NCBI GenBank assembly: GCA_017470985.1 | Contig: JAFUXA010000008.1 | Location: 1-64,000 of the forward strand | Source of the DNA: Lachnospiraceae bacterium | GTDB taxonomy: Bacteria; Bacillota; Clostridia; Lachnospirales; Lachnospiraceae | Direction of reading: 5' to 3' | DNA: 64,000 bases | Shown: piece after piece, positions 43,208-48,705 of the stretch | Numbering within the stretch: position 1 is the first letter of the stretch | Layout of the letters: every line of letters begins with the position of its first letter | Position numbers and translations under genes: made by a program | Notes under the pieces: model-generated | What the model was told of the DNA's origin: nothing | The model's input: the letters and a program-made list of their open reading frames with translations, nothing else | Databases searched by the model: none

Positions 43208-44665
43208 TTACTTGTCTTTCAACCCCATAGCCAGCTCTACAACCTTGTACGCTCCATTGTAAAGTCCAACCGAATTGTTTGTATTGATATTTTCACACAT
43301 TTCATTCAACAGATCTGTCTGCATAAACATGTCGATCATCTGAATTACATGTGGTATATCCCTGCACTCTAATGTTCCATCACCAACTTCTGCAGAGTGA
43401 ATAGCGCCCCACATCTCATGTTTTCCAACTCTAGGAATGAAGAGTTTTGGAACAGGATAAAATGCTAACTCAGAAGGCTTTGTTGCAAGAACATCAGCAC
43501 TTCTCATAAGCAGATTTGTAATATATACTGCCTCGAAAATATTCTCATGATAGAATCCGTGAATTCCCTCAACATCTCCTGTAAGAGCATCCTCTGCAAA
43601 TTTGCTAGAAGCCTCAAACTCGTTGAAATGTTCTGTAGATAATCCCTTCATCTCTGGGATTTGTTCTGTCAAATAATCCCATACGCCCTTATAATCACCA
43701 ACATTTACATACAAAGCAGCTTTACCAGCTTTGATCGAAGGAATGAGGTGCTTGATGATAGCCTCGAAAATCTCTCTCTGAGCTCCTGCTCCACCGATTG
43801 TAAGCAAGAATCTCATTGGCTTGCCATCTGCTTTTCTTGCAATACGAGCATCGCAGTCAGCCTTGATATTAGATACAAGCTCATGATCAATATAATGACC
43901 TGTGTATACCAAATCATCTGCAGGCATTGGTTTACATACCTTATCCTTATTCATACCATTTAAGATTCTATATCCCATGTAAGCATTCTTACACTGGATT
44001 GTATGTACACTTCCCTCTGAGAAATGTAATGCCATTGGCCAATTGTCCGGAATGGCATTTACTACATATTTCATACCTGCATGAATAGCAGCCTGGGCCG
44101 GCCATACATGTGTACCGATTACAGGAATATCCTTTGGTACATTCTTGTATACAGTAGCCATAAGTTCTGCATTCTTCTGATCAGCAGAGTTATATGATAA
44201 AGCTCTGAAACCTTCATAGTTCATCCACTCCCAGAACTTATTGAACAATGGATTCTTCGACAATCTAGATCCAAGAGAATACAAATCGTTCTGTGCACTA
44301 ATAATCTTGGTACATGTTGTCTGAGGATATCCATTTAAATCCATCCAATATGGTGTATATCCCATAGACTTAGCAGCAGATGCCATAGCCATTGAAATTC
44401 TATAATGACCGAATCCCATACGGATATTTCCTACGATAATACCCTTCTCTGTGTCAAATGGAACTTCACTCTCGCCATCCTGAAGTAAGATGTCATATAC
44501 TCCAAGAGAATCACCGATTCTGTCATTCTTCTTCACAATTGTGTTGTAGCTGACATCAGAATCATCACCGAATTTCTTGGCATATTTCTTCTTAGACTTC
44601 ACTGCCTTGTTGTAATCCTTATCACTGATTACATTGCCAAATATAACCTTTGACTTGTCTTGCAT
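43208..44665 (-). CDS. Unknown protein with GT-B/MGDG-synthase-like features
   Basis: A 485-residue cytoplasmic protein that I cannot name. It resembles the MurG/MGDG-synthase layout: an N-terminal GNIRMGFGHYRISMAMASAA with MDLNGYPQT, a middle VIGTHVWPAQAAI and NAIPDNWPMALHFSEG, a central FLLTIGGAGAQREIF (glycine loop at the domain joint) and ADVLATKPSELAFYPVPKL, the place where nucleotide-sugar GT-B enzymes have TKPGG. No membrane segment. ATG 44665 is supported by GGGAGG 11 nt upstream. It is placed between a TetR regulator and an alpha-galactoside symporter, so a link to galactose or glycolipid metabolism is possible. Confidence 0.7.
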   Translation of the reverse strand: MQDKSKVIFGNVISDKDYNKAVKSKKKYAKKFGDDSDVSYNTIVKKNDRIGDSLGVYDILLQDGESEVPFDTEKGIIVGNIRMGFGHYRISMAMASAAKSMGYTPYWMDLNGYPQTTCTKIISAQNDLYSLGSRLSKNPLFNKFWEWMNYEGFRALSYNSADQKNAELMATVYKNVPKDIPVIGTHVWPAQAAIHAGMKYVVNAIPDNWPMALHFSEGSVHTIQCKNAYMGYRILNGMNKDKVCKPMPADDLVYTGHYIDHELVSNIKADCDARIARKADGKPMRFLLTIGGAGAQREIFEAIIKHLIPSIKAGKAALYVNVGDYKGVWDYLTEQIPEMKGLSTEHFNEFEASSKFAEDALTGDVEGIHGFYHENIFEAVYITNLLMRSADVLATKPSELAFYPVPKLFIPRVGKHEMWGAIHSAEVGDGTLECRDIPHVIQMIDMFMQTDLLNEMCENINTNNSVGLYNGAYKVVELAMGLKDK

Positions 44666-44752
44666 ATTAATTATTCCTCCCTTATTAATATATATAAACA
44701 TCTATATATCAAAGCTATGCATATAACTTCTTACTAGATAATTTATTGCAAC

Positions 44753-45307
44753 TTATTTGTTCAAAATGCCATCAACCATAATTGATACCAGTTCATCAAG
44801 AGCATCTGCATATTCAATACCCATTTTATCTAACTCATCAGACATGAGCATTCTCTCAACTGCAGCCTCAAATGTAATCTGGAACACTCTGAAATCTATC
44901 TCTCGTACAATACCGGCTTTAACGCCCTCTTGAAATAAAGAAATAGTAGTATCCCAATCACTCTCTATTCTCTTTTGGACAATAGCATAAATCTCTGGAT
45001 ATTTATTTCTTAAAGCATAAGCTTCATTAAAGTTAAACTCTCTATATCCATCTGGAAGAACGCCGAGAATCATTCTAATCTTCTGTTCTAGAGATAAAGA
45101 ATCATTATTTAATATCTCATTTTCACTTTCTTTAACTCTATCAAATAGATAATCTGCCATAGCCATAAGCAATGACTTCTTATCTCTAAACGCTATATAA
45201 ATTGTCTTCTTGCTCATTCCTAATTCATGAGCAACATCATCCATTGTAAATTTAACACCTTTTCTCTTAACAACCTCGATTGCGCCGAGCAATACTTTCT
45301 CCCTCAT
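44753..45307 (-). CDS. TetR-family transcriptional regulator
   Basis: A 184-residue one-component regulator. The N-terminal HTH reads VKFTMDDVAHELGMSKKTIY followed by IAFRDKKSLL, the classic TetR signature; the C-terminal helices carry the ligand pocket. ATG 45307 is used, 7 nt after GGGAG; an upstream TTG (45322) would add five residues. It is the first gene of the set tetR, GT-B-like unknown, symporter, alpha-galactosidase, and has an inverted repeat just upstream that is a candidate for autoregulation. Confidence 0.9.
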   Translation of the reverse strand: MREKVLLGAIEVVKRKGVKFTMDDVAHELGMSKKTIYIAFRDKKSLLMAMADYLFDRVKESENEILNNDSLSLEQKIRMILGVLPDGYREFNFNEAYALRNKYPEIYAIVQKRIESDWDTTISLFQEGVKAGIVREIDFRVFQITFEAAVERMLMSDELDKMGIEYADALDELVSIMVDGILNK

Positions 45308-45333
45308 TTTCACATCTCCCAATATACTTATTT

Positions 45334-45402
45334 AAAACCAAAGTTTCTTGCAAACCACAGATATAGATAGCTTGCGGAAACCAAGAAACTAAATTTGGTT
45401 TT
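45334..45402. promoter_or_regulatory. Large inverted repeat upstream of tetR
   Basis: AAAACCAAAGTTTCTTG (45334-45350) and CAAGAAAC-TAAA-TTTGGTTTT (45382-45402) are inverted copies; the right arm has four extra bases. Inside, CAAACC and GGAAACC repeat the theme. It starts 27 bp upstream of the tetR ATG and is a likely operator region. Confidence 0.55.
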
Positions 45403-45570
45403 ACCGTTTCCTATATTGTAACATTCCCCTTTGCCTGTAACAACACTACATATCTCACAAAAAAGCCACTCTTCTTTTGTATATTTTTTCAAAGGCTTAA
45501 TTTTTGGATATCTTGAACAATATATATTTCATAAATGTTACCTGGAAGTTACCTTTTCGGTGTTTGTATA

Positions 45571-45684
45571 GTAATATTGCATAATTGCAGCGTCTATGAA
45601 TTGTGCAATATTACAACACCCTCTTTCATAGTCCTTGTTCACTTTTCCGCAAAAACCTACGATTTTTGTATTATTTGCACAATT
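45571..45684. promoter_or_regulatory. Regulatory array upstream of the mini-protein promoter
   Basis: GTAATATTGCATAATT (45571-45586) and AATTGTGCAATATTAC (45599-45614) form a 44-bp palindrome with one mismatch, and a third copy of the half-site, TTGCACAATT, lies at 45675-45684, about 20 bp before the -35 box. Consensus TTGCAYAATT. GTTACC is also directly repeated at about 45537-45553. The rest of the 453-bp gap between tetR and the mini-protein gene is AT-rich without an open frame that I can support. Confidence 0.6.
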
Positions 45685-45701
45685 TTACATAAATGTTTTT
45701 G

Positions 45702-45730
45702 TTGACATTGTCAGTGACAGGGTGTATAGT
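45702..45730 (+). promoter_or_regulatory. Strong promoter of the mini-protein pair
   Basis: TTGACA (45702-45707), 17-bp spacer, TATAGT (45725-45730). The spacer carries TGTCA-G-TGACA, which also overlaps the -35, so repressor control is possible. Predicted start near 45737, 24 nt upstream of the first ATG. Confidence 0.85.
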
Positions 45731-45760
45731 AAGGTCATCAAAGGAAAGGAGTACAAGAAA

Positions 45761-45877
45761 ATGTTTGATGATTCACTTTACGAGTTGTATGTAAACTATG
45801 ATCGTTATGTACGCAAGCAGGAAGCTAAAAACGAAAAGCCAGTTTCTTTTCTGAAGTACGCTTTCGGTAACTACTAA
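45761..45877 (+). CDS. Mini-protein A (38 residues), paralogue of mini-protein B
   Basis: A 38-residue protein beginning MFDDSLYELYVNYDRYVRKQ and ending PVSFLKYAFGNY. AAAGGAG lies 8 nt upstream of the ATG and a consensus promoter precedes it. Aligned with the protein at 45970-46089 it shares the pattern D-Y-x-R-Y-V-R-x-Q-E, then a polar middle, then V-S-F-x-K-x-A-x-G. No signal peptide, no Cys and no membrane segment; it is probably two amphipathic helices. I do not recognise the family. Two tandem paralogues, each with its own ribosome site, argue that the frame is real. Confidence 0.8.
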   Translation: MFDDSLYELYVNYDRYVRKQEAKNEKPVSFLKYAFGNY

Positions 45878-45897
45878 GATTCATAGCAGAAACAACC

Positions 45898-45914
45898 GGT
45901 CTTATAATAAGACC
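45898..45914 (+). other. Perfect hairpin between the two mini-protein genes
   Basis: GGTCTTAT-A-ATAAGACC, a perfect inverted repeat 21 nt after the first stop codon. No T-run follows (ACAAAACAGG), so it is more likely an mRNA processing or stability element, or an operator, than a terminator. Confidence 0.6.
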
Positions 45915-45969
45915 ACAAAACAGGTAACAATATTAATTAATTATAAATAACTTTATGGAGGTAACAATT

Positions 45970-46089
45970 ATGGAATTCACAAATTCAATTGGTATGGTAG
46001 TAGCAGATTATGAGAGATATGTAAGAACACAGGAATCAGCTGGTAAGGAAGCAGTTTCATTCTTCAAGTTTGCTTTAGGTCAGTTCTAG
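45970..46089 (+). CDS. Mini-protein B (39 residues), paralogue of mini-protein A
   Basis: A 39-residue protein beginning MEFTNSIGMVVADYERYVR and ending AVSFFKFALGQF, with GGAGG 8 nt upstream. It shares about 12 identical and several similar positions with mini-protein A, including D-Y-x-R-Y-V-R-x-Q-E and V-S-F-x-K-x-A-x-G. The gene is 92 bp downstream of mini-protein A on the same strand and followed by a terminator, so the two probably form a short, highly expressed operon. No homologous family known to me; a regulatory or partner-binding helix hairpin is a guess. Confidence 0.8.
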   Translation: MEFTNSIGMVVADYERYVRTQESAGKEAVSFFKFALGQF

Positions 46090-46142: not shown

Positions 46143-46174
46143 GAGGCCCGGAGAAATCCGAGGCTTATTTTTTT
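46143..46174 (+). terminator. Terminator of the mini-protein operon
   Basis: GCC-CGGA-GAAA-TCCG-A-GGC (GNRA-type loop, one bulge) followed by TTATTTTTTT on the plus strand, 55 nt after the second stop codon. Confidence 0.85.
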
Positions 46175-46362: not shown

Positions 46363-47865
46363 TTATAAAGCAGCAATAAATCTTCTAAATTCAGCCAATC
46401 CTTCTTCTGTACATTTAAATACTCCTGCATCTTCCAATACTTTGCAGAATACTTTACCAACTTCCTGCTGAAGCACTTCCTCAATATTAGTTGCATCGAT
46501 AGTCTTGCCAGCAGCCTTGTACTCAGCCATGAATTCATCAACCCAGTTCGCATGTTTTTCAAGAGTCTCATTTGCTCTTATATCTTCACCTTTTACAATA
46601 GCATCAGCCAGCTCTTCAAGTTCGCCCTTTAATCTAGCTGGCAACACTGCAAGCCCCATTACTTCAATAAGTCCAATATTTTCCTTCTTGATATGATGAA
46701 GCTTCTCATGTGGATGATATACTCCCAGAGGATGTTCCTCTGTTGTAATATTATTTCTCAAAGCCAAATCAAGCTCGAACAAATCTCCTCTTCTTCTGGC
46801 AATTGGAGTGATAGTATTATGTGGTTCACCATCTGTCTCAGCATAGACAAATGCATCCTCATCGGTATATCCTCTCCAGGTCTGCAAGATATGATCGGCT
46901 AAATCAATAATTCTCTTCTCATCCTTGCACTGCAATCTTATTACTGATAGAGGCCATTTTACAATACCAGCCTTCACATCCTCATAACCTTTTACAGTGA
47001 ATTTTTCAATTATAGGAGCCTTTTCCATGGCAAATGTATAATGACCGCCCTGGAAATGATCATGACTCAAAATTGAACCACCAACAATTGGAAGATCTGC
47101 ATTGGACCCCAGAAAATAATGTGGGAAAAGCTTAATAAAATCAAACAATTTAATAAAAGTAGCTTTCTCCACTTTCATTGGAACATGCTGCCCATTAAAT
47201 ACAATACAATGCTCATTGTAATATACATATGGAGAATACTGGAATCCCCACTTGCAATCATTTATTGTAATAGGAATAATTCTATGATTTTCTCTTGCAG
47301 GATGATTCACTCTTCCAGCATAACCTTCATTTTCCATACAGAGCAGGCATTTAGGATAAGACGACTGCTTCGCATTCTTGGCAGCTGCAATAGCCTTTGG
47401 ATCCTTTTCCGGCTTTGACAGATTAATAGTAATATCAAGTGTGCCATAATCTGTATCTACAGTCCACTTCTTATCTTTCTTCACTCTGTAAGTTCTGATA
47501 TAATCACTATTTCTGCTGAGATTAAAGAAATAATCTGTGGCATCCTGTGGAGATTTCTCATACTCCTCCCAGAAAGTCTTCTGTACTGTAGCAGGTCTTG
47601 GGCAGAGACAATTCATAAGTCTTGTGTCAAATAAATCTCTATATACTACACTATCCTCAATCAATCCCTTGGCAACAGCCTCATCCAACAGATCTGCAAG
47701 AACATCCTCCAATATTATATTTGACATATCACAGTCCGGATCTGTATATTCATCCTCCTGCATTACATCCAATACCAGATTGGTCACATATGCTCTCTCG
47801 CACTCCTCAGTAAGGCCAGTATCGATACCATACTGTACCAACTTCTTAATACTTTCCTGTAACAT
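46363..47865 (-). CDS. galT: UDP-glucose-hexose-1-phosphate uridylyltransferase, type 2
   Basis: Converts galactose-1-phosphate and UDP-glucose to UDP-galactose and glucose-1-phosphate in the Leloir pathway. The 500-residue length and motifs belong to the Firmicute GalT2 family (short GalT1 enzymes are ~350): NLSRNSDYIRTYRVKKD, CLLCMENEGYAGR, HPARENHRIIP, and the catalytic region GGSILSHDHFQGG. C-terminal LFELDLALRNNITTEEHPLG and VYHPHEKLHHIKKENIG are also family-typical. It has its own promoter and terminator. galK and galE are not in the window. Confidence 0.94.
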   Translation of the reverse strand: MLQESIKKLVQYGIDTGLTEECERAYVTNLVLDVMQEDEYTDPDCDMSNIILEDVLADLLDEAVAKGLIEDSVVYRDLFDTRLMNCLCPRPATVQKTFWEEYEKSPQDATDYFFNLSRNSDYIRTYRVKKDKKWTVDTDYGTLDITINLSKPEKDPKAIAAAKNAKQSSYPKCLLCMENEGYAGRVNHPARENHRIIPITINDCKWGFQYSPYVYYNEHCIVFNGQHVPMKVEKATFIKLFDFIKLFPHYFLGSNADLPIVGGSILSHDHFQGGHYTFAMEKAPIIEKFTVKGYEDVKAGIVKWPLSVIRLQCKDEKRIIDLADHILQTWRGYTDEDAFVYAETDGEPHNTITPIARRRGDLFELDLALRNNITTEEHPLGVYHPHEKLHHIKKENIGLIEVMGLAVLPARLKGELEELADAIVKGEDIRANETLEKHANWVDEFMAEYKAAGKTIDATNIEEVLQQEVGKVFCKVLEDAGVFKCTEEGLAEFRRFIAAL

Positions 47866-47982: not shown

Positions 47983-48687
47983 TTATTCATCTCCAAATAC
48001 TATATTTAAGCATTGTAAATATTCTTTGTAGGCCTTCACCTGTGATAAATCCGACAGGATATCTGCTATACTTCTGTAATACCATTCCTGCATTACAGGA
48101 TCACTTTGGTTAAATGCTGCCCACATATCCTCTCCCCTTGTATCATATGTGGATACCGACATTCTCATATTGGAAAGCTTATCTCCCAAAGCAATAACCT
48201 TGGCTTCCATACGCACATTTTTCAAATGCGCAATAGCATTTTCCTTACGAATCTTCCATGACTCCTTTGAGGACATATATCTCATTTTGTCCTCACTCTC
48301 ATCATTTACCAGATCTGCCACTGCCACGCTGAATTCATCTGCCAAATCATCATATACATAAGAAGTATCTTCTATTACATCATGCAATAGGGCTGCCGCA
48401 ATACAATCATCAGGTTTTAAATCTATCTGAACTTCCTTAGCATCCATAATCCTGGCTACGATTCCGCCAACCTCTAGAGGGTGAATTATATATGGCAGAT
48501 TGGTACCCTTTCTCACCTGATTTCTATGCGCCATGACAGCAAAGAGAATCGCCCTATCCACCTCGTCACTGTTATGTCTGTTGAGAATATATAATATATC
48601 CTCACTATCAGGTCTTATTCTACAGAATCTCTGACCATTCTCATCCACGCCTATAAATTCATCAATAACCTTCTTATCATATCGCAT
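47983..48687 (-). CDS. HD-domain phosphohydrolase, (p)ppGpp hydrolase-like
   Basis: A 234-residue protein made of a single RelA/SpoT-type HD domain, as in small alarmone hydrolases (MESH1-like). Motifs: AHRNQVRKGTNLPYIIHPLEV (in part HRNQVRKG and YIIHPLEV), the metal pair in AALLHDVIEDT, and VIALGDKLSNMR, where the conserved aspartate binds metal. There is no synthetase, TGS or ACT domain. ATG 48687 follows AAGGAG by 9 nt; a GTG at 48690 is possible. Substrate could be (p)ppGpp or another nucleotide. Confidence 0.82.
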   Translation of the reverse strand: MRYDKKVIDEFIGVDENGQRFCRIRPDSEDILYILNRHNSDEVDRAILFAVMAHRNQVRKGTNLPYIIHPLEVGGIVARIMDAKEVQIDLKPDDCIAAALLHDVIEDTSYVYDDLADEFSVAVADLVNDESEDKMRYMSSKESWKIRKENAIAHLKNVRMEAKVIALGDKLSNMRMSVSTYDTRGEDMWAAFNQSDPVMQEWYYRSIADILSDLSQVKAYKEYLQCLNIVFGDE

Positions 48688-48705
48688 CACATTTCTCCTT
48701 ACGCA

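What the first reader, a model, noticed from the sequence alone, without database searches (positions are those of the whole stretch)
45761..46089. Tandem pair of unknown 38- and 39-residue paralogous proteins under a strong promoter
Two short frames, each with a strong ribosome site, share D-Y-x-R-Y-V-R-x-Q-E and V-S-F-x-K-x-A-x-G. They sit between a near-consensus promoter and a terminator and are on the opposite strand from all neighbours. Conservation between the two copies at the protein level shows that they are real genes. They have no signal peptide, membrane segment or Cys, so they are not obvious secreted peptides. I know no matching family.
Basis: partly seen in the sequence, partly recalled or inferred. 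Interest (0 to 1): 0.8.

Follow-up and report, generated by a model that had tools for sequence, protein, structure and literature searches.

The report
Conserved tandem microprotein pair beside galactose genes
Two neighbouring genes for related proteins of only 38 and 39 amino acids are real, conserved genes of some gut and rumen Lachnospiraceae; they sit next to galactose-handling genes behind an unusually conserved control region, and what they do is not yet known.

Summary
ORF A (45761-45877, 38 aa) and ORF B (45970-46089, 39 aa) are 42% identical paralogues between a TTGACA-17-TATAGT promoter and a terminator hairpin. They belong to a small-protein family found, where searched, only in Lachnospiraceae: 7 of 397 family genomes, 5 of 334 genera; 31 named loci, 23 of Pseudobutyrivibrio type. 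Selection acts on the protein: pN/pS 0.17 over 190 pairs of 20 Pseudobutyrivibrio sequences. No Pfam, NCBIfam, PHROGs or PADLOC family matches credibly; the best solved-structure match (Hfq, E 0.15) is judged chance.

Each of seven groups (my grouping) has tetR with galactoside genes, or galT, or both, beside the pair. The TetR operator stays with tetR, and three loci without tetR keep the microprotein promoter, so TetR is probably not its regulator. The promoter has its own TTGCACAA-type boxes; their upstream inverted repeat occurs once in this genome.

My reading: soluble, probably helix-loop-helix microproteins that bind a partner protein, perhaps in galactose/galactoside metabolism. "Real family" is near certain; function is inference (0.3).

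The parts
45761..45877 (+). ORF A, 38-aa microprotein
   Evidence: G000-G139 pN 0.011 against pS 0.375
45970..46089 (+). ORF B, 39-aa microprotein, paralogue of A
   Evidence: preferred codons: top 1.8% of random 38-codon stretches of 41 window genes
45702..45730 (+). promoter TTGACA-17-TATAGT
   Evidence: TTTGTTGACA in 34 of 34 promoters compared (each was picked for holding TTGACA; L030, with none in the sequence held, was left out of 35)
45674..45685 (+). promoter box TTTGCACAATTT; its ACAA lies at the same distance from the -35 in 33 of 34 promoters (1 bp off in L056)
45571..45614 (.). upstream inverted repeat, 16-bp arms 45571-45586 and 45599-45614 (TTGCATAATT / AATTGTGCAA)
   Evidence: found only here in the genome at up to 3 mismatches
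45746..45751 (+). Shine-Dalgarno AAGGAG of ORF A
45957..45961 (+). Shine-Dalgarno GGAGG of ORF B
45898..45914 (+). hairpin between A and B
   Evidence: z -3.8; one compensatory pair change in G150, read by eye
46144..46174 (+). terminator hairpin and T run
44753..45322 (-). divergent TetR-family regulator; a relative is present in 28 of 31 named loci
45376..45411 (.). probable TetR operator GGAAAC-N24-GTTTCC
   Evidence: at least one exact half in 28 of 28 tetR-bearing named loci, both halves in 24; none in the 3 loci without tetR
46363..47865 (-). galT, convergent neighbour
   Evidence: galT in 7 of 31 named loci (7 of the 8 not of Pseudobutyrivibrio type)

Best explanation
The two genes encode soluble microproteins of one new family, probably abundant. 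Each is probably an amphipathic helix, a short charged loop and a second short aromatic helix. They are made from their own promoter, which looks strong and specially regulated, independently of the neighbouring TetR repressor, and probably work by binding a larger partner protein, most likely one in galactose or galactoside uptake and breakdown, to adjust its activity. A and B are diverged copies that may pair with each other or serve two partners. Shown: a coding family under purifying selection, tandem and promoter conservation, genomic association. Inferred: fold, abundance, partner binding and pathway. This is the most specific reading I commit to; the housekeeping rival below is a broader basket and is put slightly higher.
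For: Coding frame under purifying selection. Homologues with the same promoter architecture in several genera. Thirty of 31 named loci, and all 7 groups by my own grouping, have tetR and/or galT within the sequence fetched (L063 is the exception). Mean hydrophobicity has helical period: strongest at 100-110 degrees in segment 1 and at 100 degrees in segment 2, with little at 170-180 (in the short segment 2 the value at 60 degrees, 1.70, is close to that at 100 degrees, 2.02). Net charge near zero in most copies (range -5 to +4) and mean hydrophobicity about zero, which suits a soluble protein. Preferred codons in B. A standalone copy with its own promoter at another locus (L063).
Against: Gene order may be inherited inertia; the loci are not independent (23 of 31 are one lineage). 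One locus (L063) has neither tetR nor galT. This TetR is common without the microproteins: of 30 TetR loci looked at, 26 show no matching small ORF (frames of at least 30 aa with a Shine-Dalgarno sequence, read by eye). ORF A codons are not optimised: 78% of random stretches score as high or higher. B of G000 against G139 gives pN/pS 0.92, a single pair with few changes. No fold, partner or expression data exist here.
Confidence: 0.3

Rival explanations
1. Housekeeping microproteins whose partner has nothing to do with galactose (for example RNA polymerase, ribosome or a central enzyme); the neighbourhood is only old gene order.
For: Own promoter and terminator, a relocated copy away from tetR and galT (L063), survival where tetR (L083, L084) or galT (L055, Pseudobutyrivibrio) is not beside them.
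Against: Found in only 5 of 334 genera of the family, which is odd for a core function; galactose-related genes beside them in all 7 groups.
Confidence: 0.35
2. Anti-repressor or co-regulator of the divergent TetR protein.
For: Divergent tetR in 28 of 31 named loci.
Against: 3 of 31 loci keep the microproteins without tetR nearby; operator distance to the microprotein promoter differs (about -91/-61 in most Pseudobutyrivibrio, -179/-155 in L078, about -326/-296 elsewhere); TetR is common without microproteins.
Confidence: 0.12
3. Leaderless secreted peptides working like two-peptide bacteriocins or other leaderless peptides (comparison recalled).
For: Tandem paralogues of about 40 aa without signal peptide under a strong-looking promoter. 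In 6 of 31 loci (L066, L072, L073, L075, L076, L080) an exporter-like pair, permease plus adaptor by my reading of the sequences, lies about 1.1 kb or more downstream behind another gene.
Against: No such pair among the neighbours of the other 25 loci that I read as an exporter, though many of their neighbours were clustered, not identified; near-neutral charge; orthologues under purifying selection across a genus; no PADLOC match and only weak PHROGs matches.
Confidence: 0.06
4. Dual-function or purely regulatory RNA, the reading frames being incidental.
For: Structured 3' end, z -3.1, and an intercistronic hairpin, z -3.8.
Against: Frame-specific selection; the intercistronic hairpin was not seen by eye in L057 or L069; the whole transcript folds no better than shuffles (z -0.74); no Rfam match at gathering threshold and none credible up to E 1.
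Confidence: 0.04
5. The microproteins are themselves minimal DNA-binding proteins that bind the TTGCACAA boxes of their own promoter.
For: The inverted repeat occurs once in the genome at up to 3 mismatches, and the promoter block occurs only at this gene in 150 genomes at up to 1 mismatch.
Against: In the own genome at up to 3 mismatches the promoter block has two further matches, with 2 and 3 mismatches, not examined; no ribbon-helix-helix or helix-turn-helix family matched any of 43 members, apart from one weak RFX match, E 0.078; near-neutral charge; polar residues in the second half of segment 1.
Confidence: 0.05

Closest known systems
Small soluble regulators of sugar transport such as SgrT of enterobacteria (recalled; one related paper, PMC4021124, seen only as a search listing with the start of its abstract)
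   Same: About 40 aa, soluble, linked to sugar handling (here by gene position only)
   Different: Own promoter, tandem copies, other phylum; no sequence comparison with SgrT was made
Helical-hairpin inhibitor proteins such as Sda and SinI of Bacillus (recalled)
   Same: Similar size and a probable two-helix layout
   Different: Neither appeared in the solved-structure search or the Pfam scan; target unknown
Hfq (PDB 1kq1), the only solved structure below E 1
   Same: 25 aligned profile positions including EYDKYV and GK
   Different: E 0.15; no Hfq match among 43 members in Pfam; microproteins show helical, not strand, periodicity; taken as chance
Uncharacterised smORF families in catalogues (GMSC PMC11364881, sORFdb PMC11796252; search listings with the start of the abstracts only)
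   Same: Conserved microproteins, mostly without known function
   Different: Whether this family is in those catalogues could not be checked

Membership tests
Bacterial small-protein (microprotein) genes in general | Frame conserved with excess synonymous change | tested here: met
   pN/pS 0.17 in frame; other frames 1.10, 1.68, 1.45, 0.30, 1.61 (the 0.30 frame is a reverse one)
Bacterial small-protein (microprotein) genes in general | Translation observed | not testable with these tools
   no ribosome profiling or proteomics available
Any family of Pfam-A, NCBIfam, PHROGs or PADLOC | Consistent profile match | tested here: not met
   43 members scanned: best E Pfam 0.00098 (Baculo_LEF5_C, 4 members), PHROGs 0.016, NCBIfam 0.024, PADLOC none; the two window proteins none in Pfam or NCBIfam
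Hfq / Sm-like | Profile match and strand-rich fold | tested here: not met
   fold by periodicity only
Ribbon-helix-helix regulators | Profile match | tested here: not met
   a profile-profile or structural comparison was not made
Ribbon-helix-helix regulators | Binding of own operator DNA | not testable with these tools
   needs a binding assay
SgrT-like sugar-transport regulators | Encoded within a sugar-stress base-pairing RNA; acts on a PTS permease (definition recalled) | not tested
   no Rfam match at gathering threshold in the window; action not testable here
Leaderless two-peptide bacteriocins | Cationic peptides (definition recalled) | tested here: not met
   charge 0 and -1 for A and B; -5 to +4 over the family
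Leaderless two-peptide bacteriocins | Immunity or export genes beside the peptides (definition recalled) | tested here: inconclusive
   none among the eight window proteins scanned; an exporter-like pair in 6 of 31 loci (my reading); many neighbours not identified

The most novel reading that the evidence does not exclude
A and B are among the smallest stand-alone gene regulators: a pair of about 40-aa proteins that bind, alone or together, the TTGCACAA boxes of their own promoter and use the same surface on a partner of the galactose pathway, forming a self-contained, transferable control cassette of a few hundred bases.
Probability: 0.04. Interest if true: 0.85.

Novelty: new member of a known kind. 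Interest (0 to 1): 0.42.

Why it matters
It defines a conserved microprotein family, with likely start codons, a dedicated-looking control region and a candidate pathway, in rumen bacteria some of which are in culture, so it can be tested directly. It would add to the few soluble microproteins outside model organisms whose role can be worked out.

Tried and rejected
TetR as regulator of the pair: the operator GGAAAC/GTTTCC stays with tetR, at different distances from the microprotein promoter, and is absent from the 700 bases upstream where tetR is absent.

Phosphate-starvation (PhoP-type) box: the 11-bp TTnACA spacing seen in some Pseudobutyrivibrio promoters suggested it (box definition recalled). 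The second unit is not kept in other groups, and no PF12849 phosphate-binding protein was found in this 88.8% complete genome, so the idea could not be tested further.

Hfq-like protein and GH2-derived fragment (one GH2 protein, L079, E 0.004 in the local set, other GH2 proteins 1.2 or weaker): both judged chance.

Mobile element or phage origin: no confirmed relative in viral contigs, none in plasmids with B, only three partial matches at E 0.9-5 in phages with the L081 protein.

Third copy elsewhere in the genome: none; next match E 1.09 inside a 603-aa frame. Microprotein-like segment elsewhere in the window: none below E 0.18.

Rfam: nothing at gathering threshold; two microRNA matches at E 0.11 and 0.7 over the inverted repeat, taken as chance.

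Family tree of 30 rows with only 42 columns (Pseudobutyrivibrio rows thinned to six of those beginning MFEEVSF, plus L078 and L079): the B copies of four groups (window genus, g67, L056, L057) fall together at 94/94, which suggests an old duplication. One A copy (L057) falls among them on a long branch, and the L083/L084 copies do not follow the split, so this is tentative.

Full report
OBSERVATION. A is 38 aa (45761-45877) and B is 39 aa (45970-46089). They share 42% identity with motifs Y-x-R-Y-V-R-x-Q-E and V-S-F-x-K-x-A-x-G. Searching the genome of the window with B finds B and A only; a 43-sequence profile finds nothing else better than E 1.09. The promoter 45702-45730 matches 11 of 12 consensus bases. 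The transcript ends in a hairpin with T run at 46144-46174 (the pattern scan had not listed it).

THE FAMILY IS REAL. Relatives were sought with B alone (150 genomes of the family; only G000, G139 and G066 below E 1e-4), with an eight-row profile (397 genomes; 7 below 1e-8, in 5 of 334 genera; 21 more genomes at 0.009-0.1, read as chance), and with a 43-row profile in the order (392 genomes; 12 below 1e-15, all in this family; ten more at 0.001-0.01, in other families, read as chance) and the class (291 genomes; only the window's own at E 0.001). The three genomes held of the window's genus all have the pair. A scan of the species-genome collection with one conserved peptide pattern gave 58 stretches, of which 31 were confirmed as relatives; more diverged relatives could be missed. 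Of the 31, 23 are labelled Pseudobutyrivibrio (22) or Butyrivibrio fibrisolvens 16/4 (1), and 8 are other Lachnospiraceae, one labelled Roseburia. Each of the 31 carries a frame of 38-43 aa with a Shine-Dalgarno sequence matching at 5 or 6 of 6 bases; where several starts were possible the one with the best such sequence was taken. Invariant or nearly invariant positions, besides the start, are Y14, Y17, V29, S30, K33, A35 and G37 of B.

SELECTION. For 20 distinct Pseudobutyrivibrio sequences (190 pairs; those beginning MFEEVSF, so L078 and L079 were left out) pN/pS is 0.17 in frame; the other five frames give 1.10, 1.68, 1.45, 0.30 and 1.61. Pairs in the window genus give 0.03, 0.29 and 0.37 for A and 0.92, 0.29 and 0.21 for B; the 0.92 rests on few changes.

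COPIES. Tandem pairs occur in 8 of 31 named loci (L054-L057, L065, L069, L083, L084), plus the window and G373. The 23 Pseudobutyrivibrio-type loci hold one copy each. G253 shows one; G276 is cut by its contig end. One Pseudobutyrivibrio MAG has a second, relocated copy (L063) with its promoter but neither tetR nor galT; similarity to its sister locus L062 is limited to about 300 bp.

NEIGHBOURHOOD. A relative of tetR is divergent from the gene in 28 of 31 named loci. By cluster sizes, a GH2 enzyme (beta-galactosidase type, my reading from its sequence) lies in 26 of the loci and the DUF6937/DUF6938 protein in 22; a MelB-type transporter shows in 4 and GH36 in 2, the loci being cut at 4 kb. 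galT lies on the other side in 7 of the 8 loci that are not of Pseudobutyrivibrio type and in L027, L028 and L030. Loci without tetR (L083, L084, L028) have galT; loci without galT have tetR, L063 excepted. Grouped by me into seven (window genus, g67 with L065, L056, L057, L083/L084/G253, G276, Pseudobutyrivibrio), all have galactose-related genes beside the microproteins. TetR itself is common without them: it was found in 46 of 250 family genomes at E 1e-15, and among the 30 best TetR loci only those of the window, G139, G066 and G154 show the small ORF.

CONTROL REGION. The 34 promoters compared share TTTGTTGACA and, in 33 of 34 at the same distance, an ACAA upstream of it (each was chosen as having TTGACA, so that hexamer is invariant by selection, and L030 was dropped). 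The block CACAAWTT-N10-TTTTTGTTGACA occurs in 3 of 150 genomes at one mismatch, each time at this gene; at up to three mismatches the own genome has two further matches, with 2 and 3 mismatches, which I did not examine. Outside Pseudobutyrivibrio, more TTGCACAA-like boxes lie upstream. In the window, L054, L055, L056, L057, L065 and L069 a pair 24 bp apart sits at about -183 to -189 and -158 to -165 from the start codon of A, and the promoter box at about -85 to -92 (in L057 and L065 the promoter box departs from the strict motif). In L083/L084 the boxes are placed differently. The inverted repeat is found once in the genome, at up to three mismatches. Single boxes of this type are not enriched in the window as a whole (8 found, 10.9 expected; 14 found, 16.0 expected), but 3 of the 8 lie within 110 bp here. 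I read this as sites of an unidentified regulator acting on a strong promoter; an RNA-polymerase UP element (recalled concept) would explain the promoter box alone, not the upstream pair. The TetR operator is separate.

PROTEIN. Mean hydrophobicity varies with helical period in both halves, less clearly in the short second one. Charge is near zero in most copies. B uses preferred codons, A does not.

WHAT IT IS. A family of soluble microproteins, in part of the Lachnospiraceae, with a probably old duplication and a dedicated-looking control region. Most likely it binds and adjusts a larger protein. The link to galactose metabolism is supported by position only and may be gene-order inertia; that is why the function is given 0.3 and the broader housekeeping rival 0.35.

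LITERATURE. Six searches listed no paper that I recognise as describing this family; only listings and starts of abstracts were seen, no paper was opened. One search joined Pseudobutyrivibrio with small protein (1 paper, on gut metaproteomics after infarction); one search searched DUF6937 (none). Large smORF studies exist (PMC11364881, PMC11796252, PMC13376575) and may hold the sequences; this could not be checked.

MENDED ON CHECKING. The genus count is 5, not 6; the exporter-like pair in six loci, the further promoter-block matches and the weak Pfam match were added; wording was narrowed.

Noticed in passing
45376-45411: Probable TetR operator GGAAAC-N24-GTTTCC, next to a likely tetR promoter (TTGTTA/TACAAT on the - strand); both exact halves in 24 of 28 tetR-bearing named loci.
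   Followed up: partly
43208-44701 (-): DUF6937/DUF6938 protein, of no known function, in the galactoside operon; in most named loci a GH2 enzyme lies between it and tetR, and in the window, L054 and L055 that enzyme is missing from this place. Use of plant galactolipids or galactosylglycerol is a guess.
   Followed up: no
L063:3860-4154: Relocated copy of the microprotein cassette beside a MazG-type gene (my reading) in a Pseudobutyrivibrio MAG that also has the ordinary copy.
   Followed up: partly
L066, L072, L073, L075, L076, L080, about 5.2-8.1 kb in the locus: Exporter-like pair (permease and adaptor, my reading of clusters c8 and c9) downstream of the single-copy gene in 6 Pseudobutyrivibrio loci.
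   Followed up: no
45898-45914: Hairpin between A and B with a compensatory change in G150, seen in the window genus.
   Followed up: partly
45537-45553: Direct GTTACC repeats in the window, L054 and L055, not in the other four sequences aligned.
   Followed up: no
47983-48690 (-): HD-domain protein of 235 aa with a RelA/SpoT-like match well below that family's cut-off.
   Followed up: no
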